A DNA stretch of 64,000 nucleotides from contig NZ_CP014234.1 of the NCBI RefSeq assembly GCF_001553955.1, forward strand, positions 992,001 through 1,056,000, read 5' to 3'. Source of the stretch: Moraxella osloensis (GTDB lineage: Bacteria > Pseudomonadota > Gammaproteobacteria > Pseudomonadales > Moraxellaceae). Under the pieces are notes generated by a model, which was not told where the DNA came from, did no database searches, and was given only the letters and a program-made list of their open reading frames with translations. The position numbers were made by a program, and so were the translations under genes. Of the stretch, positions 43,431 to 61,604 are shown one piece after another. The first letter of the stretch is position 1; the number at the start of each line of letters is the position of its first letter.

Positions 43431-43544
43431 AGGCTCTGCATTAATGTAAAAAAACCTGCGGCAAAGACAATTTTACTTGATAATTCTTGGCAAAATTGAT
43501 GTAATGTTCCTGAACTATTCAGCAACAACCTAGCAAAACTTGTT

Positions 43545-44332
43545 GGTGGTGTTTCAAAAAGTATGCTGGCATTAAACGAATCCATTATTGATATAAAAGA
43601 ACACTAAATCAAAGGCTTTGAAATGATTTTCAAGCTTTTTGGAGAAGTTGCAGCTTCTCCTAAAGCCTCGCCTGATTCGATGCCGTAATCGACAATTATT
43701 GCCTTCTATACCCACAGTGAAAAATTTACCAATCAACTGTTTGCATTCTTTAAAGGTCGTAACAAAGCTATCCCAATGGTCACTTGATATACATGTATAG
43801 CTTACACCTAACTGCTTCAATTTTAATTTAAGTCGTTTTGCAGTGGCTAAATCTCGGTTACCCCATACATAAGCAACAATTTCACCTGTTTCTCGATGAT
43901 AGGCATAAATTAGCCATTGTTTATTTTGCTTATGACCAACAAAAGTCCAAAACTCATCTACTTCAAGGGTTTCATAATGACTTTGCTGTGCTCGAAGTTG
44001 ATATTTTGATTGGCTAAGTGTCCGTAGAACTTTACCGATACTTACTCTTTCAATTTCTGCTATATCCCTGACACCACTGCCTCGCACCATGAGGTGTAAT
44101 ATTTTGGTTTTGATACCTGAGTGACAGCCTTGATAACTGAGAGCATGATCACCAATAAATTGACGTCTGCATATTTTACATTGGTAATTTTGCTTACCAT
44201 CTACTTTTGTGCCATTTTTCTTTATACTGTCACTTAGGCAGGCTGGACACTTGATTTCTAGAGTTATTCGCATTTCTCTATTTTATCAAAATCCAACCTG
44301 CTTTTTTTCAGCATACTTTTTGAAACACCACC
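43545..44332 (-). mobile_element. IS1-family insertion sequence, left copy
   Basis: 788 bp with perfect 24-bp terminal inverted repeats beginning GGTGGTGTTTCAAAAAGTAT. Carries one transposase frame. It interrupts an ISAba11-like copy, of which 44 bp remain on its right side. Confidence 0.93.
43572..44273 (-). CDS. IS1-family transposase (left copy)
   Basis: A 233-residue transposase in a single frame, unlike classical IS1, where InsA and InsB are joined by frameshifting. The zinc-finger N-terminus has CPACLSDSIKKNG and CKICRRQF. A helix-turn-helix region (IAEIERVSIGKVLRTL) follows, then the catalytic set with LEVDEFWTFVG, SSDHWDSF and GIEGNNCRLRHRIRRGF. The protein sequence is identical to the right copy at 51315. 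Intact, so mobility is likely. Confidence 0.93.
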   Translation of the reverse strand: MRITLEIKCPACLSDSIKKNGTKVDGKQNYQCKICRRQFIGDHALSYQGCHSGIKTKILHLMVRGSGVRDIAEIERVSIGKVLRTLSQSKYQLRAQQSHYETLEVDEFWTFVGHKQNKQWLIYAYHRETGEIVAYVWGNRDLATAKRLKLKLKQLGVSYTCISSDHWDSFVTTFKECKQLIGKFFTVGIEGNNCRLRHRIRRGFRRSCNFSKKLENHFKAFDLVFFYINNGFV

Positions 44333-44376
44333 AAGTATTTTAATACTTTTTTGAATCCGTCAATGCGTAAGTCCTA
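44333..44376 (-). mobile_element. 44-bp relic of an ISAba11-like element
   Basis: Matches base for base, on the opposite strand, the first 44 bp of the complete element at 45813. It ends in the same 13-bp terminal repeat (TGCGTAAGTCCTA at 44364-44376). The rest of this copy was removed when IS1 arrived. Confidence 0.85.
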
Positions 44377-45001
44377 TTAATTTATTTTTTTTAGGACAAA
44401 CCTTAACAAAATTACAAATTTGTAATTTGGTTGTCATTTAGGTGTATATATCTAGGAATTAGTATATGAAGAAATTATTTTTTGGTCCAAGATATGATTA
44501 GATTCAATAATATATATATGAAGATTGTTTTAGTTATTTTTACTATAGTTTTTTCAACCAGTAGTTTTGCTGATGGGGGACTTCGTTTCTTAGAGAAAAA
44601 TTTAGAAATAATTAACAATGAAAAAAGCAAAGGGTGTGAAGAGAATTAATTCAAAATTATAATGAAGCACATATAACTAGGAAAACTAAAAATTAGTTAT
44701 TTTTAGTATGGTGTAACTAAGATTAATTAATTTTTTTAAATCGAATGATAAATATATTTATTGTTTTTAATTTATTCTTTACCATTTTCAAATTTTTAAA
44801 TAATCCGAAAAGACTATTTTAAACTTTAGGGTTACATATGCTCCTATACATAGGCAGGAATAAATATGCAACTTAGTATATTTGCAACAATAGTACTGGA
44901 AAGATTCATGTAATAATGCTTAAAACTCTCTAATTAGTTAGGGAGGCATTGGAATTGGAGAAAAAAGTAAAGTGCCCACTAGCAAATGTGGTTATTGGAG
45001 G
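44377..45001. other. Very AT-rich cargo DNA, left part
   Basis: About 625 bp, very AT-rich. Apart from the small frame at 44518 it holds no credible gene. Confidence 0.5.
44518..44649 (+). CDS. Small secreted peptide ORF, unknown
   Basis: A 43-codon frame starting MKIVLVIFTIVFSTSSFADG, a good signal peptide with cleavage likely after SFA. The mature part of about 25 residues is charged, with a single Cys near the end. It may be the beginning of a decayed periplasmic protein gene. There is no strong ribosome site. Confidence 0.35.
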   Translation: MKIVLVIFTIVFSTSSFADGGLRFLEKNLEIINNEKSKGCEEN

Positions 45002-45114
45002 GGCTTTGTTGCACAAAGATTTCATAACTATATGATTTTAAAAGTTTTGATTATTTTTTGATCCAAAATTAAATTTATTTAAATCAGATGCTTACATATT
45101 TATGCAACAAAGCC
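45002..45114. mobile_element. 113-bp mini-element with IS6-type inverted repeats
   Basis: Starts GGCTTTGTTGCA and ends TGCAACAAAGCC, a perfect 12-bp inverted repeat. The ends resemble those of the Acinetobacter IS6 group (IS1006 and relatives). The 113-bp interior is AT-rich and codes for nothing. No 8-bp target duplication is visible (ATTGGAGG against GTAGCTAT). It is either a deletion derivative of an IS6-family element or a MITE. Confidence 0.65.
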
Positions 45115-45199
45115 GTAGCTATTTAATTTTTTATATTTTAGTTTAAATATAAACATGTTATGTTTAATTTGATCTAATATAAATTTGTGGGCTAAGCAC

Positions 45200-45442
45200 A
45201 TGACTCAAACACGTCCAAGAATGACCAAATTATTTGAACAGCTTGGTTTAGCTTCTACTGAAGAAGCAATTGCAAAATTCATAGAGAGCCATCAGCTAGC
45301 TGGAGATGTTTTTTTAACACAAGCAATTTTTTGGACTGATGCTCAACGTCATTTTTTAGAAGAAAAACTACACTCTGATGGTGAATGGACGACAGTGATT
45401 GATCAATTAAATGAGTCTTTACATGAAAATTCAGTAAAATAA
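45200..45442 (+). CDS. DUF2789 family protein
   Basis: An 80-residue protein from ATG 45200 (MTQTRPRMTKLFEQLGL); an in-frame TTG at 45185 is less likely. The pattern LFEQLGLASTEEAIAKFI, then FLTQAIFWTDAQRHFLEEKL and a closing W-T-V-I-D-Q-L-N is that of DUF2789, a short gammaproteobacterial family of unknown function. Its very AT-rich codon use fits the transposon cargo and not the host. It stands alone. Confidence 0.75.
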   Translation: MTQTRPRMTKLFEQLGLASTEEAIAKFIESHQLAGDVFLTQAIFWTDAQRHFLEEKLHSDGEWTTVIDQLNESLHENSVK

Positions 45443-45812
45443 TTTTCCGTTAGTATTAAGGATCTACATTCTTCCCTGCATTGAATACAACTCATTCATA
45501 CAGTAGTACTGTTTTGGAGATGGAATCTCTATTATATAAGTAGTAGATTCCTTACTCTGAAATTTGGATTATAAACCCTAATATTAAAAATAATCTTCTT
45601 TACCTTCTATCTAATAAATATACCAATAAGTTTAATAATTAAATTATCCACCCTTTTTTCTATAAAAAACTATTTTGATCAACTGTATTTTTTCTTTAAA
45701 GGAATAACAGTGTAAATTACATTAAGAATGTGTCTCTAACTAGCCTTGGAGTCATCTAATCATTTCATTTTTATTTTTTTAAGCACATAAAATCATAACA
45801 ACTTTAATAGTT
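45443..45812. other. AT-rich spacer before the ISAba11-like element
   Basis: About 370 bp of AT-rich DNA with no reading frame, repeat or promoter that I can support. Confidence 0.5.
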
Positions 45813-46913
45813 TAGGACTTACGCATTGACGGATTCAAAAAAGTATTAAAATACTTTATAAAGTATCTGTGATCAGACGAATTAAACATGCTTCTACAGC
45901 AACTTGTACATTACCCATTTATATGGGCTTTCTCATGACAGAACCGAACTCTATTAGCTGCACACAACTTGCCGAGACTTATAACATCTCGCATGATAGT
46001 GTAAATCGCTTTCTAGAACGTGAAGACTACACACCTCACGACCTATATCAAGAAGCAATTCAACATATTGATAATAATAAACTTATAGTCAGTATTGATG
46101 ATACTGTTTTAGATAAACCCTATAGTCAACATATGGACTTGGTTAGCTATTTTTGGTCAGGCAAACACCACCGATCCGTCAAGGGTATTAATCTCATTAC
46201 CTTGTATGCGACAGATCAGAATGGTCAAAATATTCCAATTAATTTCCGAATTTATGACAAATCTGAAAGTAAAACCAAGAATGATTACTTTATGGATATG
46301 TTAAGTGAAGTACTCAGTTGGGGTGCAAAGATTCAATTTATTACAGGTGATAGTTGGTATTCATCGACTGGAAATCTAAAAACCATAAGAAAATATGGTA
46401 TTCGATTTATGTTTGGTATCGACTGTAACCGTAAGGTTTCCCCAGAAAAAGGACAATGGTTTCAACTGCGTTTATTGCCAAATTTCCATCAGGGTCAAGT
46501 GGTCTGGCTCAAAGATTTTGGCTTTGTACAATTATTTAAGACTCAGTTAAAAGAACAGCAGAGGTTTTATATTGTGCATCAAGATGAAGATGATTTATTG
46601 TCCTTTGAGGGTTTTCATGAATTACATTCAAGTCATTGGAAAATAGAGCAATATCACCGGGTGATTAAACAGGTTTGTCATATTGAAAAGTTTCAAGTAA
46701 GACGATCTAAACTGATTTTGAATCATATTTTTTCAGCCTTGATGGCCTACGTCGAGATACAAAAGAACCAGTTTGAGCGGATCTTTGAAAATGTATATCG
46801 TTGGCAGAAGAAATTATTTAGACCAGTTATCAAAAACTTCATTGATGACTTTATTCTCGATAAAAATCATCTGCTACCACAGAGAATCTATAAATAATAG
46901 TGCGTAAGTCCTA
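45813..46913 (+). mobile_element. ISAba11-like IS701-family insertion sequence
   Basis: 1101 bp between perfect 13-bp terminal repeats TAGGACTTACGCA (45813-45825) and TGCGTAAGTCCTA (46901-46913). Length and repeat size agree with what I remember for ISAba11 of Acinetobacter. The flanking pentamers TAGTT and TGTAC differ, so there is no target duplication, as expected after recombination between two copies. Confidence 0.8.
45869..46897 (+). CDS. IS701-family DDE transposase (ISAba11-like)
   Basis: A 342-codon frame (GTG at 45869). Next in-frame ATGs lie at codons 19 and 24. The IS4/IS701-type catalytic set is visible: SIDDTVLDKP, TGDSWYSS with the second Asp, and SHWKIEQYHRVIKQ with the YREK-like Glu. 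The frame has no stop, so the element may be active. The transposase is typical of Acinetobacter, supporting that source for the cargo. Confidence 0.85.
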   Translation: MIRRIKHASTATCTLPIYMGFLMTEPNSISCTQLAETYNISHDSVNRFLEREDYTPHDLYQEAIQHIDNNKLIVSIDDTVLDKPYSQHMDLVSYFWSGKHHRSVKGINLITLYATDQNGQNIPINFRIYDKSESKTKNDYFMDMLSEVLSWGAKIQFITGDSWYSSTGNLKTIRKYGIRFMFGIDCNRKVSPEKGQWFQLRLLPNFHQGQVVWLKDFGFVQLFKTQLKEQQRFYIVHQDEDDLLSFEGFHELHSSHWKIEQYHRVIKQVCHIEKFQVRRSKLILNHIFSALMAYVEIQKNQFERIFENVYRWQKKLFRPVIKNFIDDFILDKNHLLPQRIYK

Positions 46914-46935
46914 TGTACTATGATAAGATTAACCC

Positions 46936-46955
46936 GTTAGGTCAGGTGGCCTAAC
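46936..46955. promoter_or_regulatory. Imperfect palindrome upstream of the alkyl sulfatase
   Basis: GTTAGGTCA-GG-TGGCCTAAC, arms of 9 bp with one mismatch, in the 320-bp leader region between the ISAba11-like element and the sulfatase. It could be an operator; it is not the same sequence as the palindrome at 50343. The rest of 46914-47234 shows nothing certain. Confidence 0.35.
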
Positions 46956-47234
46956 TTAAATAAAAAAGTCTCCGACAAACCCGGTACGGTTCAGTAAATC
47001 AACGTTATGATTAGTCTAAACTGATCATTGATTAAAAATGTTGCTACTAAAAACGATGTAAGTCAAAAATGATGCGAGCTAAGGACGAGCATGAATTAAT
47101 TAACGATCATGAATGAACTTATGGAGGGTAAAGGACTTTATAGCGAGATTAAGTCATCGTATTAGATGTCGAATGAAAAGAACAGTACAGATCAGAAAAT
47201 CAAAAATTATGGATATTTTGAAGAAGGAAAGACA

Positions 47235-49190
47235 ATGAAAGTTAAATTTTTAACGGTTTCATTGATGTTTATTTTGCCATTTTCTGTTTTTGCAGCAAAT
47301 GGACAAGTCGAAAAAGCGGTCATTGAATCAAATAATGCGTATAAAACCAAATATAATTTAGACGATATGACAGAGTTTAATTATGCGCAAAAAGGCTTTA
47401 TTGCCAAGCCAACAGGTCAAATTAAAAGTGAAAAAGGCAATGTGATCTGGGATTTTGATGCGTTTAATTTTTTAAATGATCCAGCACCAAATACTGTTAA
47501 TCCTGCACTATGGCGACAAGCAAAGCTCAACAATAATGTTGGTCTATTTAAAGTGACAGATCGAGTTTGGCAAATTCGTGGTTTTGATTTGGCAAATATG
47601 ACCATTATTCAGGGTGATACTGGCTGGATTATTGTGGATACATTAACCTCTAAAGAAACGGCTGAAGCAGCACTTAAATTTGCTAGGCAGCATTTAGGTG
47701 AGCAAAAAATTTCAGCCATTATCTTTACCCATAGCCATATCGATCATTTTGGTGGTGCATTAGGCGTTCTTTCTACAGAAGAAATTAACGCTAGAAAAAC
47801 CCCAATTATTGCGCCACAAGGCTTTATGGAAGAAGCGACCAGTGAAAATTTGATGGCAGGTTCAGCCATGATACGTCGTGCGACCTATATGTATGGAACC
47901 TTTTTACCAAAGAATGCTGAAGGATTGGTGGATACAGGTTTAGGTAAGGCTGTTGCTGTTGGGAAAATGGGAATCCTTGAGCCTACACAACTGATCACCC
48001 AAGCAGAACAGAAAATGAGCATTGATGGCTTGGATTTTGTGTTTTATAACGTGCCGGGTTCAGAAGCGCCAGCAGAGTTAACCTTCTCTATCCCATCACT
48101 GAAACTTTATAATGGCGCAGAAATTCTTTCGCATACCATGCATAATCTTTATACCCTCCGCGGTGCCAAAGTCCGTGATGCCTTAAAATGGGTAGGCTAT
48201 TTAGACCAAGCAATGCAGCATGCCAAAGCATCCGATGTATTGATTGCACAACATCATTGGCCTGTCTGGGGCAATGACAATATTCAAGATTTTATTAAAA
48301 CCCAGCGAGATGTTTATAAGTTCACACATGATCAGACGGTGAGATATATGAACTCTGGTTTTAATGGTGCTGAAATTGCCGAGAAAATTCAGCTTCCAGC
48401 GGCACTTGATCAAAAGCTATATGCGCATGGCTATTATGGAACCTTAAAGCATAATGTAAAAGCGATATACCAATACTATATGGGATGGTTCGATGCTCAT
48501 CCTTCCAATTTAGATCCATTACCGCCTAAAGCTGTTGCAAAAAAATATATTGAGTTGGCAGGTGGGGAGAATAATGCATTAAAAAATGCGCGGGATGCCT
48601 ATGCTCAAGCTGACTATAGATGGGCTGCCGAGATTTTAAAACATATTGTGTTGAATAACCCTCAAAACCAACAAGCAAAAGACTTATTGGCAAATACGTA
48701 TCGTCAATTGGGCTATGCTGCTGAGGCTTCAACTTGGCGTAATTTCTTTTTGGTGGGTGCTCAAGAGCTACAAAATAATGTACCTATGGAAAATACATCT
48801 GATCCGAGTGATTTATTGATTCACACGCCAACTGAAAGATTTCTTGAAGCCATGGCGACAAATTTAGATGTGGAAAATTTAAAAAATGAAAACCAGTGTA
48901 TCAATCTGGTTTTGTCGGATACCCAAGAGAATTTTTCATTATGGGTTGAAAACTCAATCATGCAGTTTAAACGTCATGATGACAGTAAAGATTTGGCATC
49001 GGATTGCCCAACATTAACCGTAACCAAGCCCTTATATCTAAAAATGATTACAGGTCAAATAGAAGGGGTAAAAGTCCTACTTTCGAAAGACAGTAAAGTC
49101 AAAGGCAATCCATTGAAAATTGGAAAATTCTTTGCCATGTTTAAACGTCCAGATTCGATTTTCCCAATTGTGACTCGACCAAATGGTTAG
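47235..49190 (+). CDS. sdsA: Alkyl sulfatase (SDS hydrolase, SdsA/YjcS type)
   Basis: A periplasmic zinc hydrolase cleaving the sulfate ester of alkyl sulfates such as SDS, releasing the alcohol and sulfate. The start is ATG 47235, behind AAGGA and giving a signal peptide (MKVKFLTVSLMFILPFSVFA); the frame is open 23 codons further upstream. The metallo-beta-lactamase motif HSHIDHFGG puts His166, His168, Asp170 and His171 nearly where SdsA1 of Pseudomonas has them. The alkyl-sulfatase dimerisation domain (about 400-530, QADYRWAAEILKHIVLNNPQ is positions 455-474) and a C-terminal SCP2-like domain (about 540-651) follow. 651 residues fits the family. A TetR gene downstream and an MFS remnant suggest a regulated surfactant cassette. 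Confidence 0.93.
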   Translation: MKVKFLTVSLMFILPFSVFAANGQVEKAVIESNNAYKTKYNLDDMTEFNYAQKGFIAKPTGQIKSEKGNVIWDFDAFNFLNDPAPNTVNPALWRQAKLNNNVGLFKVTDRVWQIRGFDLANMTIIQGDTGWIIVDTLTSKETAEAALKFARQHLGEQKISAIIFTHSHIDHFGGALGVLSTEEINARKTPIIAPQGFMEEATSENLMAGSAMIRRATYMYGTFLPKNAEGLVDTGLGKAVAVGKMGILEPTQLITQAEQKMSIDGLDFVFYNVPGSEAPAELTFSIPSLKLYNGAEILSHTMHNLYTLRGAKVRDALKWVGYLDQAMQHAKASDVLIAQHHWPVWGNDNIQDFIKTQRDVYKFTHDQTVRYMNSGFNGAEIAEKIQLPAALDQKLYAHGYYGTLKHNVKAIYQYYMGWFDAHPSNLDPLPPKAVAKKYIELAGGENNALKNARDAYAQADYRWAAEILKHIVLNNPQNQQAKDLLANTYRQLGYAAEASTWRNFFLVGAQELQNNVPMENTSDPSDLLIHTPTERFLEAMATNLDVENLKNENQCINLVLSDTQENFSLWVENSIMQFKRHDDSKDLASDCPTLTVTKPLYLKMITGQIEGVKVLLSKDSKVKGNPLKIGKFFAMFKRPDSIFPIVTRPNG

Positions 49191-49533
49191 GGGGAAATAA
49201 CGAAGCTTAAATGTTTAGGCTTAATTCAATAGAGTCGAATAAAAAGGGAGAACTTATAGATTAGTTCTCTCATTTTTTATATCAGTATTTCAATAAAAGC
49301 TCTTGTTTCATCAAGCAAAAATGATGATGTGCAACGAATCATGTTGGTATTAAAAATTCCTTCTCGTTTTGAGATAAAGCTAGTATGGGTGGACGATTTT
49401 AGTATGAGGGGGATTTTATATTGCGCTATGCTTATAGCTACATTGATGTAATTAGTGACTCGTATTGGCTTGAATTGTGAATTAGCTAGGGCTCCTCTAT
49501 AATTAAATTCTTGCGTGTAGAAAATAGAGAAGT
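49191..49533. other. Spacer between the sulfatase and tetR genes
   Basis: About 340 bp holding the sulfatase terminator and presumably the tetR promoter. A minus-strand 88-codon frame (49277-49543) fills much of it but has no support. Confidence 0.5.
49241..49278 (+). terminator. Rho-independent terminator after the alkyl sulfatase
   Basis: GAGAACT with AGTTCTC around TATAGATT, preceded by A5GG and followed by CATTTTTT. Confidence 0.8.
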
Positions 49534-50151
49534 ATGTCATCACAATCTCAAGTCGCTTCTACTCAGGTGACAAAACGCCAAACCAAGCCAGCAGAAGTCC
49601 GAATTGATGAGCTGATGAATGCTGCACAAACGCTTTTTTTAGCAAAAGGTGTGGAAGCTACCACCATTAGCGAAATTATTGCCAGTGTGGGCGTTGCTAA
49701 AGGGACTTTTTATCATTACTTTGAATCGAAACAGCATATTGTTGAAGCCTTAAAAAAACGTTATATCGATTTTTTTATCGCGGCCTTAGACACGGCAGTT
49801 GCAACATGTGATGCTGAAGATTGGGTCAGTCAATTTAAGGTTTGGGTCTCGGCCAATATACAAACCTACCTCGAAAGTTATGCAGTGCATGATATTGTTT
49901 TTGGTGCACATCACCATGAACGTAAAAATAATGAAAAAAATATGATATTGGAACAATTGCTGCAAATCTTAAATGGAGGGCAGCAGGCGGGTATTTGGCA
50001 TTTAGAACAGCCAAGATTGACTGCGTTATTGATTTATTCTGGTGTACATGGGGTTGCAGATGAAGCAATTGCCAATCAACTGCACGATAGCACAGATTTT
50101 TCTCAGCAAATTGCGCTGCAATATTTAAAAATGCTCCATCATGATGGCTAA
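49534..50151 (+). CDS. TetR/AcrR-family regulator
   Basis: A 205-residue regulator. The N-terminal helix-turn-helix domain (about 20-70) reads LMNAAQTLFLAKGVEATTISEI, then VGVAKGTFYHYFESKQHIVEAL, the usual TetR signature. The C-terminal ligand domain is not assignable to a subfamily. It lies between the alkyl sulfatase and the MFS gene, all in the same direction. A perfect 31-bp palindrome lies 190 bp after its stop in front of the MFS gene and is its most likely operator. Whether it also controls the sulfatase is unclear. Confidence 0.88.
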   Translation: MSSQSQVASTQVTKRQTKPAEVRIDELMNAAQTLFLAKGVEATTISEIIASVGVAKGTFYHYFESKQHIVEALKKRYIDFFIAALDTAVATCDAEDWVSQFKVWVSANIQTYLESYAVHDIVFGAHHHERKNNEKNMILEQLLQILNGGQQAGIWHLEQPRLTALLIYSGVHGVADEAIANQLHDSTDFSQQIALQYLKMLHHDG

Positions 50152-50342
50152 CTTTTACCATTATTTTGAATCGTATAAATCGCTTCTCGTCTGATATTCT
50201 TTTATTATCAATTTTAATTAAAACCCTAAACGATGCATTTTAAAGTCAACCATTCTCCTTAAGTTGCAGTCACTGGTGATCTTTAAAAGTGCTTTCAAGA
50301 CAGTCTATAAAAAATGAAAGCTTTGGGTTTTAAGTGGGTTTT

Positions 50343-50373
50343 TATACATTGACCGACGGTCGGTCAATGTATA
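50343..50373. promoter_or_regulatory. Perfect 31-bp palindromic operator before the MFS gene
   Basis: Half-site TATACATTGACCGAC (50343-50357), centre G at 50358, and its exact complement to 50373. It overlaps a promoter: TTGACC (50349-50354) and TATAAT (50375-50380). The form ACCGAC-N-GTCGGT is typical of operators of TetR-family regulators of efflux genes. Confidence 0.8.
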
Positions 50374-50409
50374 GTATAATGATTCTCATTTAAATGATCT
50401 AGGTGATGT

Positions 50410-51255
50410 ATGAATGCATCTCGCCAGCCGATTTATCTTATTCTAGCGCTCTATATCAGTACCTTTCTGTGTTTGGTGGATTTAAGCAGTGTCAATCTTG
50501 CACTTGGAAGTATTCAAAACCAATTTAATAGTGACATGGCAGATCTACAATGGGTGATTGATAGCTATGCTTTAAGTCTATCGAGTTTAATGTTAGCGGT
50601 GGGGGCATTAAGTCAGCGCATAGGGCGTAAAAAATTATGGTTGCTGGGTGTGATCATTTTTATTGTGGGTTCATTGATTTGTGCAATGGCAAGCAATTTT
50701 AGTTTATTGATTATTGGACGAATGATTCAGGGTGTGGCTGGTGCAGTTTTAATCCCTTTGGCATTGGCGATCATGGTGCATCATTTTCATCAACCGCAAG
50801 ACAAAGCACGTGAAATTGGTCGCTGGAGTTCGTTTAGTGCATTTTCATTAATTGTCGGTCCATTGATGGGTGGGTTGCTGGTACATCATTTTGGTTGGCA
50901 AAGTATTTTCTGGCTCAATCTTCCTGTTGGGGTTCTAACGATTTACTTGGGCTATTATGGTATCGAGGCGGATCAGAAATCGGTGGCTGTACCTTTTGAT
51001 TATCTAGGTTTGCTCTACAGTGCTGTAGCGATCGTCACATTAACGTATAGCATTATTGCATTACAACATGTGCATTTAGCGCATTGGTTTATGCTGAGTA
51101 TTTTCTTATTTATCTTGGCAAGTATGGCGTTTGTATGGCAGCAAAAACATGCCACTCATCCATTGATCCCCAATCATTTATTTAAAAATAAACGGTTTTT
51201 AGCCTATAACGCGATTTCTTTTATTTTAGGGTTTGCAGGATATAGTTCGTTATTT
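50410..51255 (+). pseudogene. MFS efflux transporter, truncated by IS1
   Basis: The first 282 codons of a drug:H+ antiporter (DHA2, EmrB/QacA-like, usually 450-500 residues). It contains the motif DLSSVNLALGSIQNQF, the D1 motif LQWVIDSYALSLSS, GRKKLWLLG and, in helix 5, GPLMGGLLVHHFGWQSIFWLNLP. About eight membrane helices are present before the right IS1 copy cuts the gene at 51256. The frame runs 22 codons plus a stop into IS1, ending at 51324, so a chimeric 304-residue product could be made. It is unlikely to transport. Regulated by the palindrome upstream. Confidence 0.85.
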
Positions 51256-52043
51256 GGTGGTGTTTCAAAAAGTATGCTGAAAAAAAGCAGGTTGGATTTT
51301 GATAAAATAGAGAAATGCGAATAACTCTAGAAATCAAGTGTCCAGCCTGCCTAAGTGACAGTATAAAGAAAAATGGCACAAAAGTAGATGGTAAGCAAAA
51401 TTACCAATGTAAAATATGCAGACGTCAATTTATTGGTGATCATGCTCTCAGTTATCAAGGCTGTCACTCAGGTATCAAAACCAAAATATTACACCTCATG
51501 GTGCGAGGCAGTGGTGTCAGGGATATAGCAGAAATTGAAAGAGTAAGTATCGGTAAAGTTCTACGGACACTTAGCCAATCAAAATATCAACTTCGAGCAC
51601 AGCAAAGTCATTATGAAACCCTTGAAGTAGATGAGTTTTGGACTTTTGTTGGTCATAAGCAAAATAAACAATGGCTAATTTATGCCTATCATCGAGAAAC
51701 AGGTGAAATTGTTGCTTATGTATGGGGTAACCGAGATTTAGCCACTGCAAAACGACTTAAATTAAAATTGAAGCAGTTAGGTGTAAGCTATACATGTATA
51801 TCAAGTGACCATTGGGATAGCTTTGTTACGACCTTTAAAGAATGCAAACAGTTGATTGGTAAATTTTTCACTGTGGGTATAGAAGGCAATAATTGTCGAT
51901 TACGGCATCGAATCAGGCGAGGCTTTAGGAGAAGCTGCAACTTCTCCAAAAAGCTTGAAAATCATTTCAAAGCCTTTGATTTAGTGTTCTTTTATATCAA
52001 TAATGGATTCGTTTAATGCCAGCATACTTTTTGAAACACCACC
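51256..52043 (+). mobile_element. IS1-family insertion sequence, right copy
   Basis: 788 bp, same ends and same length as the left copy but in the opposite orientation. Cuts the MFS gene. Directly followed by the target duplication AACTTGTT. Confidence 0.93.
51315..52016 (+). CDS. IS1-family transposase (right copy)
   Basis: 233 residues, identical to the left-copy transposase, with the same CPAC/CKIC zinc finger and Asp, Asp, Glu catalytic motifs. Identity of the two copies implies a recent origin of the composite or ongoing homogenisation. Confidence 0.93.
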   Translation: MRITLEIKCPACLSDSIKKNGTKVDGKQNYQCKICRRQFIGDHALSYQGCHSGIKTKILHLMVRGSGVRDIAEIERVSIGKVLRTLSQSKYQLRAQQSHYETLEVDEFWTFVGHKQNKQWLIYAYHRETGEIVAYVWGNRDLATAKRLKLKLKQLGVSYTCISSDHWDSFVTTFKECKQLIGKFFTVGIEGNNCRLRHRIRRGFRRSCNFSKKLENHFKAFDLVFFYINNGFV

Positions 52044-52167
52044 AACTTGTTAGGTACAACCTGTCAGTCAACCCCAGTTATTTGGTTATCTAGTTGCCTA
52101 ATTATTTATTTAGTTAGTTAGCTAGTTACCTCGTTAATAGTGGCTTGCTGCCAGTTAGGAACCTGCT

Positions 52168-59876: not shown

Positions 59877-61604
59877 ATGAAAGGTCAATCATTTGATACG
59901 GATTTTTTGGTTATAGGCTCAGGCTTTGGCGGTAGCGTCTCGGCGATGCGACTGACCGAAAAAGGCTATCGCGTGATTATCGCGGAGCAAGGCAAGCATA
60001 TATCGCCCGAGACCATGCCCAAAACCGTGCGCGATATCAAGCAGTTTTTGTGGTTGCCTGCGCTCAAGTACAAAGGTTTTTTTTCGCTTCAGCTATTTAA
60101 GCATGTCATGGTGTTGCATGGTAACGCGGTGGGCGGTGGCTCAATCACTTATGCCAACACCTTATTACAACCAGAAGACAAAATCTGGCAACAAGGTAGC
60201 TGGGCAGGGCTTCACGACTGGGAAGCGGTGATGCCACAACATTATGAGACCGCCAAACGCATGCTAGGCGTGAGCCAAAACAAAAAAGTCGGCAATGCCG
60301 ATTTGATGCTACAAAAAATGGCAAACTTGAGTGGCGTGGGCGATAGTTTTTATCTCACCGATGTGGGCGCCTACTTTAGTGACCATGACAAGTATGCTCA
60401 TCCTTCTGTCAATGGTGACCCGTATTTTGGCGGCGCAGGTCCTAAGCGCAGTCCCTGTATAGGCTGTGGTGGCTGTATGGTGGGCTGCCGTTATGGTGCC
60501 AAAAATACCCTAGATAAAAACTATCTGTATTTTGCCCAAAAAAATGGCGCTACCCTGCTCGCTGAAACCAAAGTCACGGATATAGTACCGATAGCTGATG
60601 CTAGCAAATCGCCTGGCGACCCTGCCTATCAAAACGGTTCGCAAGGCTATCGGGTGACGCTTCAATCAGCGGATAAAGGTGAGTATCAAATCACCACCCA
60701 ACAGATTGTGCTGTCAGCCTCCAGCCTCGGTAGCCAAAAACTGCTGTTTGAGCAGCGCCATAAGGGCAATATGCCCCATATTTCCCCTTATCTTGGCAAG
60801 CGTATCTATACCAATGCTGAGTCCTTGCTAGGGGTGCGATTTTTGGATGACCAACATGGCGCCATGAGTGATGGCGTGGCTATCGGCTCTGGGATTTATT
60901 TGGGCGATGGCACACACATTGAGGCGACGCGCTATCCTGAAGGTTTTAATATTGCGTCATTTTTGGCGACGTTAAGCAATTATAAGAACGGCAAAAAAAT
61001 GTCGCTACTGGCTTGGTTATGGTGTTTTATAGCGCAGTTTATCCTCAAGCCCCGTCAGGCGTGGCGTGCATTTCGACCGCATAATATGGCAAAACAAAGC
61101 CTTATCTTGCTATGTATGCAAAGCACGCCCTATGCGCTTGAAATGCGCTATCAAAAAAGCCCGTGGTGGCGGGCTTGGTTGGGTAGTCGCTACCAGATGC
61201 AAACCTATGGCCCTGCCATCCCCGCCTTTATCCCAGAAGCAAGCGCGTTTGCCGAGCAGATGGCAACCCAAATGGGAGGAATTGGTTATGGCGTGTTGTC
61301 GGAAGTATTTTTGAATATCCCGACCACCGCGCATTGTATGGGTGGGATTTCGCTGGGCAATTCTGCAGCAGATGGCGTGGTTGATAAGTACCACCGATTG
61401 TTTAATTATCAAGGGTTTTATGTCTGCGATGGCGGCAATATCTCGACCAACTTGGGCGTCAACCCAAGCCTCACCATAACGGCGTTGACAGAGCATGCCA
61501 TGAGCCATATTCCGCAAAAATCAACCCAGTCACCGTACCCTGCGGATACCACCAGGCAAAACGTAACGCTCGTTCAAAAAGATGCTAGCAAGATACCGGA
61601 TTAA
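59877..61604 (+). CDS. GMC-family FAD oxidoreductase, cholesterol-oxidase-like
   Basis: A 575-residue flavoprotein. The FAD-binding VIGSGFGGSVSAMRLTEKG lies at residues 12-30, and NAVGGGSITYANTLLQP and the C-terminal GGNISTNLGVNPSLTITALTEH (positions about 522-543) are typical of cholesterol-oxidase-type GMC enzymes. A cysteine cluster CIGCGGCMVGC (Cys194, 197, 200, 204; CX2CX2CX3C) could hold an Fe-S cluster, unusual for classic GMC oxidases. Substrate unknown; with the next gene it may oxidise an alcohol to an aldehyde and then an acid. AAGGGGAA lies before the ATG. First gene of the operon, divergent from tetR. Confidence 0.87.
   Translation: MKGQSFDTDFLVIGSGFGGSVSAMRLTEKGYRVIIAEQGKHISPETMPKTVRDIKQFLWLPALKYKGFFSLQLFKHVMVLHGNAVGGGSITYANTLLQPEDKIWQQGSWAGLHDWEAVMPQHYETAKRMLGVSQNKKVGNADLMLQKMANLSGVGDSFYLTDVGAYFSDHDKYAHPSVNGDPYFGGAGPKRSPCIGCGGCMVGCRYGAKNTLDKNYLYFAQKNGATLLAETKVTDIVPIADASKSPGDPAYQNGSQGYRVTLQSADKGEYQITTQQIVLSASSLGSQKLLFEQRHKGNMPHISPYLGKRIYTNAESLLGVRFLDDQHGAMSDGVAIGSGIYLGDGTHIEATRYPEGFNIASFLATLSNYKNGKKMSLLAWLWCFIAQFILKPRQAWRAFRPHNMAKQSLILLCMQSTPYALEMRYQKSPWWRAWLGSRYQMQTYGPAIPAFIPEASAFAEQMATQMGGIGYGVLSEVFLNIPTTAHCMGGISLGNSAADGVVDKYHRLFNYQGFYVCDGGNISTNLGVNPSLTITALTEHAMSHIPQKSTQSPYPADTTRQNVTLVQKDASKIPD

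What the first reader, a model, noticed from the sequence alone, without database searches (positions are those of the whole stretch)
43537..52051. Composite IS1-family transposon carrying an alkyl sulfatase cassette
The block has a single 8-bp target duplication (AACTTGTT) at its outer limits, two same-length copies with identical transposases as ends, and Acinetobacter-like cargo including an SDS hydrolase and its TetR regulator. That structure proves transfer as one unit into the mutM downstream region. A mobile surfactant-degradation unit suits bacteria of laundry, skin and wastewater and may not have been described.
Basis: partly seen in the sequence, partly recalled or inferred. Interest (0 to 1): 0.82.

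Follow-up and report, generated by a model that had tools for sequence, protein, structure and literature searches.

The report
Tn6645, a known sulfatase-carrying jumping unit
This 8.5-kb block in the chromosome of a likely Moraxella osloensis matches, feature for feature, the jumping-DNA unit Tn6645 published in 2019; it likely came from Acinetobacter and carries a gene predicted to break down detergents such as SDS, so the finding is real but not new.

Summary
Two identical, inverted 788-bp IS1-family elements (43545-44332, 51256-52043) bound 6,923 bp of cargo, with the 8-bp duplication AACTTGTT outside and none inside. A same-genus genome (L011) has one uninterrupted AACTTGTT at that spot. 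This is a composite transposon inserted as one unit.

It is already published: size, TIR letters, MITEAba12, DUF2789, ISAba11-like element, alkylsulfatase, TetR and truncated MFS gene all match Tn6645 of M. osloensis CCUG 350 (PMC6382973). Another alkyl-sulfatase composite, Tn6682, has different IS ends (PMC7031236).

The calls add three things. (1) Acinetobacter sp. ANC 3929 carries a shorter sister unit at another site with its own duplication (CTAATTTA) and empty sites in relatives; its two IS copies equal the window's, and 48992-52043 (3,052 bp) is letter-for-letter the same. (2) The window's sulfatase gene looks mosaic: mostly plasmid-type up to 48991, ANC 3929-type from 49062, so the unit may be a hybrid. 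(3) The only TetR-operator-like palindrome found in the unit lies before the truncated transporter, not the sulfatase, so "its TetR regulator" is unsupported.

Verdict: confirmed, already known, low interest.

The parts
43537..43544 (.). left target-site duplication AACTTGTT
   Evidence: single copy in empty site L011
43545..44332 (-). left IS1-family element, 788 bp; transposase ORF 43572-44273 (233 aa); the Tn6645 paper calls it ISAba3-like (81%)
   Evidence: name from PMC6382973
44333..44376 (-). 44-bp end relic of an IS701-family (ISAba11-like) element, cut by the left IS1
   Evidence: perfect inverted match to 45813-45856
44375..45001 (.). segment 100% identical in three other family genomes (G176, G059, G036)
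45002..45114 (.). 113-bp MITE, ends equal to those published for MITEAba12
   Evidence: PMC6382973 Table 2 passage
45115..45812 (+). segment 100% identical to many Acinetobacter plasmids, with the DUF2789 gene (45200-45442)
45813..46913 (+). complete IS701-family (ISAba11-like) element, 1,101 bp; transposase ORF 45869-46897; no matching flanks
46914..46994 (.). about 81 bp repeated across the family, under IS3-family annotations in several plasmids; likely an IS3 end relic
47235..49190 (+). alkyl sulfatase, 651 aa, metallo-beta-lactamase type, likely exported; mosaic gene with a likely crossover between 48992 and 49061
49534..50151 (+). TetR-family regulator, 205 aa
50347..50369 (.). palindrome CATTGACCGACGGTCGGTCAATG, predicted TetR operator of the MFS gene
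50410..51255 (+). MFS transporter gene (DHA2/EmrB-like) cut by the right IS1 after residue 282; an intact relative has 462 aa; the frame runs on into the IS to 51324
51256..52043 (+). right IS1-family element, 788 bp; transposase ORF 51315-52016
52044..52051 (.). right target-site duplication AACTTGTT

Best explanation
The block matches the published composite transposon Tn6645: two identical inverted IS1-family elements likely moved the DNA between them, mostly of Acinetobacter type, as one unit into an intergenic site downstream of mutM, leaving an 8-bp duplication. Shown: the IS pair, the single outer duplication, the empty site in a relative, and a sister unit at another site in Acinetobacter sp. 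ANC 3929 with its own duplication and empty sites. Inferred: that the IS1 transposase acted on the two outermost ends in the usual composite way; that an Acinetobacter replicon was the donor; that the exported zinc sulfatase removes sulfate from alkyl sulfates such as SDS; that the TetR gene belongs to the truncated MFS pump and travels as a passenger.
For: IS copies identical, one outer 8-bp duplication, none inside. Empty site in L011, near-identical site in L010. The IS has no other full copy in the genome. PF14863 in 1 of 6 genus genomes, the own one. Feature-by-feature match to Tn6645 (PMC6382973 passages). Sister unit in ANC 3929 with duplication CTAATTTA and five gapless empty sites among six other genomes that share its left flank; 48992-52043 identical. 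DUF2789 segment 100% in Acinetobacter plasmids; sulfatase in 21 of 72,556 plasmid records, all Acinetobacter.
Against: No transposition was observed. The window was not compared with accession CP014234.1 of CCUG 350. Host named only from plasmid similarity (20 records, all Moraxella, the best covering 10% of the query) and the paper. The published zinc-motif spacing did not match the sulfatase letter for letter, though the same residues align to a solved relative without a gap. Whether it is a primary or secondary alkyl sulfatase was not tested.
Confidence: 0.95

Rival explanations
1. Two independent IS1 insertions on either side of an older foreign island, so that the block never moved as one transposon.
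For: The left and right IS sit in unrelated DNA (IS701 relic, MFS gene).
Against: Each IS would then have its own duplication; the inner and outer 8-mers of each IS differ, and the two outermost match. The same right half with the same IS pair sits elsewhere in ANC 3929 with its own duplication.
Confidence: 0.02
2. The unit is a hybrid: a crossover inside the sulfatase gene joined the right half of an ANC 3929-type unit to a left half from another replicon that held a plasmid-type sulfatase, and the hybrid then jumped. This refines the main explanation and does not exclude it.
For: Of 96 sites where ANC 3929 and the 5,594-bp plasmid differ, the window follows the plasmid at 65 of 73 up to 48991 and ANC 3929 at 23 of 23 from 49062; 48992-52043 identical to ANC 3929; the left IS junctions differ; two plasmid-type alleles (L065, L066) have other 3' ends.
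Against: 8 of the 73 left sites follow ANC 3929; the last four of the 23 right sites lie at or past the end of the plasmid match (49211). Upstream of the gene the window is closer to A. guillouiae than to the plasmid. ANC 3929 could be the recombinant instead. No replicon with the left half joined to a plasmid-type sulfatase was found.
Confidence: 0.55
3. The TetR protein represses the sulfatase gene, and the pair is a regulated detergent-degradation cassette.
For: Sulfatase and tetR lie together here, in ANC 3929, in an A. ursingii unit with IS3-family ends (L105, without the MFS gene) and in the published Tn6682.
Against: The only operator-like palindrome found is before the MFS gene; the next best match in the unit has 8 of 23 mismatches, the best upstream of the sulfatase 10. 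In G052 the same TetR and MFS genes, with the palindrome, flank ORFs that read like iron-uptake genes (my reading), with a second, weaker palindrome before a 741-aa receptor-like ORF.
Confidence: 0.15

Closest known systems
Tn6645 (M. osloensis CCUG 350; PMC6382973, abstract and passages seen)
   Same: 8.5 kb, same 24-bp TIR letters, 8-bp duplications, MITEAba12, DUF2789, ISAba11-like element, alkylsulfatase, TetR, MFS gene short by 540 bp (180 codons, 282 of 462 left here).
   Different: Nothing found to differ; the deposited sequence itself was not compared.
Unit of Acinetobacter sp. ANC 3929 (NZ_KB849998.1; L021, L104)
   Same: Same IS (0 differences in both copies), same inverted layout, same MFS junction, 48992-52043 identical.
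   Different: Other site and duplication (CTAATTTA); lacks 44333-47220; first 1.77 kb of the sulfatase region 3.6% different.
Tn6682 (A. lwoffii M2a, A. ursingii M3; PMC7031236, passages seen) and the like unit in A. ursingii CIP 107286 (L105)
   Same: IS-bounded unit with alkyl sulfatase and tetR.
   Different: Direct IS3-family (isoISAba14) ends, about 5.5 kb, no MFS gene; that L105 is Tn6682 rests on layout and size (5,557 bp).
5,594-bp MOBP plasmids of Acinetobacter (e.g. NZ_CP077307.1, L065)
   Same: Sulfatase region 99.5% identical to the window over 47224-48990.
   Different: Mobilizable plasmid with relaxase and MobC, no TetR; 3' end of the gene differs.

Membership tests
Composite transposon (IS-bounded) | Two copies of one IS as ends | tested here: met
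   two identical 788-bp IS1-family copies, inverted
Composite transposon (IS-bounded) | One target duplication outside the pair, none inside | tested here: met
   AACTTGTT outside; inner 8-mers AAGTATTT and CGTTATTT
Composite transposon (IS-bounded) | Empty target in relatives | tested here: met
   L011 exact, L010 with one base different; 2 of 5 other genus genomes aligned
Composite transposon (IS-bounded) | Movement as a unit observed | not testable with these tools
   needs an experiment; a sister unit at a second site is indirect support
Tn6645 | Gene and element content in the published order, TIR letters, 8-bp duplication | tested here: met
   against passages of PMC6382973
Tn6645 | Sequence identity to CP014234.1 | not tested
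   the record was not fetched
Tn6682 | Directly repeated isoISAba14 (IS3-family) ends | tested here: not met
   ends are inverted IS1-family elements
Type III (metallo-beta-lactamase) alkyl sulfatase | Lactamase_B, Alkyl_sulf_dimr and Alkyl_sulf_C domains | tested here: met
   all three over the Pfam cut-off; six solved relatives incl. SdsA1
Type III (metallo-beta-lactamase) alkyl sulfatase | Zinc-binding motif as printed in PMC3346939 | tested here: inconclusive
   THxHxDHxGG found at residue 165; the full printed spacing did not match, E and H residues shift by one but align ungapped to 7tl5
Type III (metallo-beta-lactamase) alkyl sulfatase | Hydrolysis of SDS | not testable with these tools
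   needs an enzyme assay

The most novel reading that the evidence does not exclude
Tn6645 is a hybrid composite transposon: its cargo gene was the crossover point at which an Acinetobacter unit of the ANC 3929 kind took a new left half from another replicon, so shared cargo genes, and not only IS ends, rebuild such transposons before they cross genera.
Probability: 0.55. Interest if true: 0.35.

Novelty: already known. Interest (0 to 1): 0.2.

Why it matters
The block is a clean, checkable case of a predicted catabolic gene carried between genera of one family by an IS-bounded unit, with a second insertion of a sister unit in Acinetobacter. The same sulfatase family sits on small mobilizable plasmids, on large plasmids (one from an isolate of spoiled shower gel, two copies) and in at least two kinds of composite transposon, which suggests repeated spread of a detergent-related gene. 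Since the unit has been named since 2019, the gain here is the sister unit, a likely crossover point and a correction about the regulator.

Tried and rejected
Two separate IS insertions: rejected by the duplication pattern. XerC/XerD (pdif) module: recalled pattern, 0 matches in the window at up to 3 mismatches. TetR as sulfatase regulator: no operator-like site found upstream of the sulfatase. A sulfatase promoter: 12 promoter-like hits against 13.7 expected in shuffles, so nothing can be read from it, the pair of hexamers over the palindrome included. The fused MFS-IS frame as a marker of other copies: none of 75 hits covers more than 93% of the query, so it did not help. The left half next to a plasmid-type sulfatase: not seen in the listed matches (lists partly capped, two candidates scored per genome). 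TetR-MFS segment on plasmids: no match. A GMC oxidoreductase as partner for the released alcohol: weak domain match, not pursued. Literature: the search for Moraxella osloensis with 'alkyl sulfatase' gave 0 papers, because the Tn6645 paper writes 'alkylsulfatase'; that paper already headed the listing, and I opened it only when the MITE led me to it.
Full report
Observation. The window holds two 788-bp IS1-family elements at 43545-44332 (-) and 51256-52043 (+), exact inverted copies. The 8 bases outside both are AACTTGTT; those inside are AAGTATTT (left) and CGTTATTT (right), so neither IS has a duplication of its own. The unit is 8,499 bp with 6,923 bp of cargo at 34.9% GC, against 44.7% for the window outside the block. 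No other full copy of the IS is in the own genome; other matches are partial at 67-81%, apart from the IS's own short ends. One same-genus genome (G001) has full-length relatives at 73%.

Empty site. 6 of 6 genus genomes, the own one included, match the mutM side. Two of the five others were aligned at the insertion point: L011 reads straight through a single AACTTGTT; L010 is also uninterrupted but has ACCTTGTT. The other three were not aligned there. The alkyl sulfatase dimerisation family is found in 1 of 6 genus genomes, the own one, so the gene is new to this genus as far as these six show.

Host. A 16-kb piece of contig C5 of the own genome matches 20 plasmid records, all Moraxella, the best at 96.0% over 10% of the piece; the taxonomy copy places M. 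osloensis in Faucicola. With the Tn6645 paper this makes M. osloensis, perhaps CCUG 350 itself, the likely host; no accession was compared.

Already published. The passages of PMC6382973 that I saw (abstract, results on M. osloensis CCUG 350, Figure 5 legend, methods) describe Tn6645: an 8.5-kb insert absent from five related M. osloensis genomes, with IS1-family ends closest to ISAba3 (81%), 24-bp TIR GGTGGTGTTTCAAAAAGTATGCTG, 8-bp duplications, MITEAba12 between the IS and a DUF2789 gene, an ISAba11-like element, an alkylsulfatase, a TetR gene and an MFS gene short by 540 bp. The window shows each: TIR letters, a 113-bp MITE with the published end sequences at 45002-45114, DUF2789, an IS701-family element, sulfatase, TetR, and an MFS gene cut after residue 282, an intact relative having 462. 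The authors found a 96% match over about 4.3 kb in A. guillouiae NBRC 110550 and no further full-length copy; 'ANC 3929' does not occur in the main text. A second composite with alkyl sulfatase and tetR, Tn6682, is in PMC7031236 (passages). A pRAY-like plasmid with the gene is mentioned in PMC5559437 (passage), and a Psychrobacter plasmid operon around an alkylsulfatase in PMC3346939 (passages). Tn6682 and Tn6645 each occur in one paper of the library.

Sister unit. Acinetobacter sp. ANC 3929 (L021, L104) carries IS1 - sulfatase - TetR - truncated MFS - IS1 in the same inverted layout and with the same MFS junction, at another site, with the duplication CTAATTTA. Of seven loci with its left flank, five (L110-L114) align without a gap over all 401 bp of the joined flanks at 96-100%, L108 over 248 bp only, and L109 is ANC 3929 itself. 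The two IS copies there and the two here have 0 differences. Of 348 family genomes 88 had some match to 47000-51400 at E 1e-30, many to the IS end only; the MFS-IS junction was covered in three: the own genome, ANC 3929 (G098), and G159, whose 4,174-bp contig ends inside an IS on both sides (two candidates scored per genome). The same IS also bounds an ABC-gene unit with duplication AAATTTTT in an A. schindleri plasmid.

Mosaic. Window and ANC 3929 are identical over 48992-52043, 3,052 bp, but differ by 3.6% over 47224-48990, where the window is 99.5% identical to the 5,594-bp MOBP plasmid. Of 96 sites at which ANC 3929 and that plasmid differ, the window follows the plasmid at 65 of 73 up to 48991 and ANC 3929 at 23 of 23 from 49062. 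Against this: eight left-hand sites go the other way; the last four right-hand sites lie at or past the end of the plasmid match; and upstream of the gene the window is nearer to A. guillouiae. The left ends differ too: in ANC 3929 the IS stands just before the sulfatase start, in the window an IS701 relic. I infer one crossover in the sulfatase gene. That the window and not ANC 3929 is the recombinant is favoured because two plasmid-type alleles (L065, L066) have other 3' ends, but is not proven.

Source. The sulfatase is in 21 of 72,556 plasmid records, all Acinetobacter; seven of them are 5,594 bp long and one comes from spoiled shower gel with two copies. The DUF2789 segment is 100% identical to many Acinetobacter plasmids. 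The TetR-MFS piece has no match in the plasmid collection but lies near the sulfatase in A. guillouiae CIP 63.46 (L023/L101, 94.6%) with an intact 462-aa MFS gene. The cargo is thus Acinetobacter-type DNA of several origins; how it reached Moraxella is open.

Function. The sulfatase is 651 aa with metallo-beta-lactamase, dimerisation and C-terminal domains, a likely signal peptide (my reading), and matches to six distinct solved sequences, SdsA1, PSdsA, YjcS and secondary alkylsulfatases among them. The printed zinc motif of PMC3346939 did not match in full: THxHxDHxGG is there, later residues are shifted by one, yet they align to 7tl5 without a gap. SDS cleavage is predicted only. The palindrome CATTGACCGACGGTCGGTCAATG stands at 50347-50369 before the MFS gene; it is exact before the MFS gene of A. 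guillouiae and within 2 and 1 mismatches in G052 and G087. No like site was found before the sulfatase. The TetR most likely controlled the pump that is now truncated.

Verdict. The finding is correct as an observation and as a class, wrong in its claim of novelty and unsupported in its claim about the regulator. Score low.

Noticed in passing
L069:1252-5133 (A. schindleri plasmid pHZE33-1-3): The same IS (0 and 3 differences from the window's) stands inverted around an ABC-protein gene with duplication AAATTTTT: another composite of this IS, beside annotated mph(E)/msr(E) genes.
   Followed up: partly
L105:5668-11224 (A. ursingii CIP 107286): Two identical direct 1,282-bp IS3-family copies bracket sulfatase and TetR, 5,557 bp in all, like the published Tn6682.
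   Followed up: partly
window 46914-46994: About 81 bp that recur in many family genomes (103 of 348 match the query 46914-47234 at E 1e-15, most listed ones over this stretch) and in the own genome elsewhere; several plasmid matches lie under IS3-family genes.
   Followed up: partly
window 45813-46913: The complete IS701-family element has no matching flanking bases, and a 44-bp relic of its end lies inverted at 44333-44376: a rearrangement older than the left IS1 junction seems likely.
   Followed up: no
window 60462-60746: Weak GMC-oxidoreductase domain in a 587-aa frame, also in G003 and G005; a possible but untested oxidase for released alcohols.
   Followed up: no
P0010: A 212-aa version of the MFS protein, 99% identical over its matched part but with a different end, suggests another break of this gene elsewhere.
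   Followed up: no
L024 and L025 (NZ_CP125670.1, spoiled shower gel isolate): Two copies of the sulfatase gene on one plasmid; the copy viewed lies near AraC, aldehyde dehydrogenase and GMC oxidoreductase genes.
   Followed up: no
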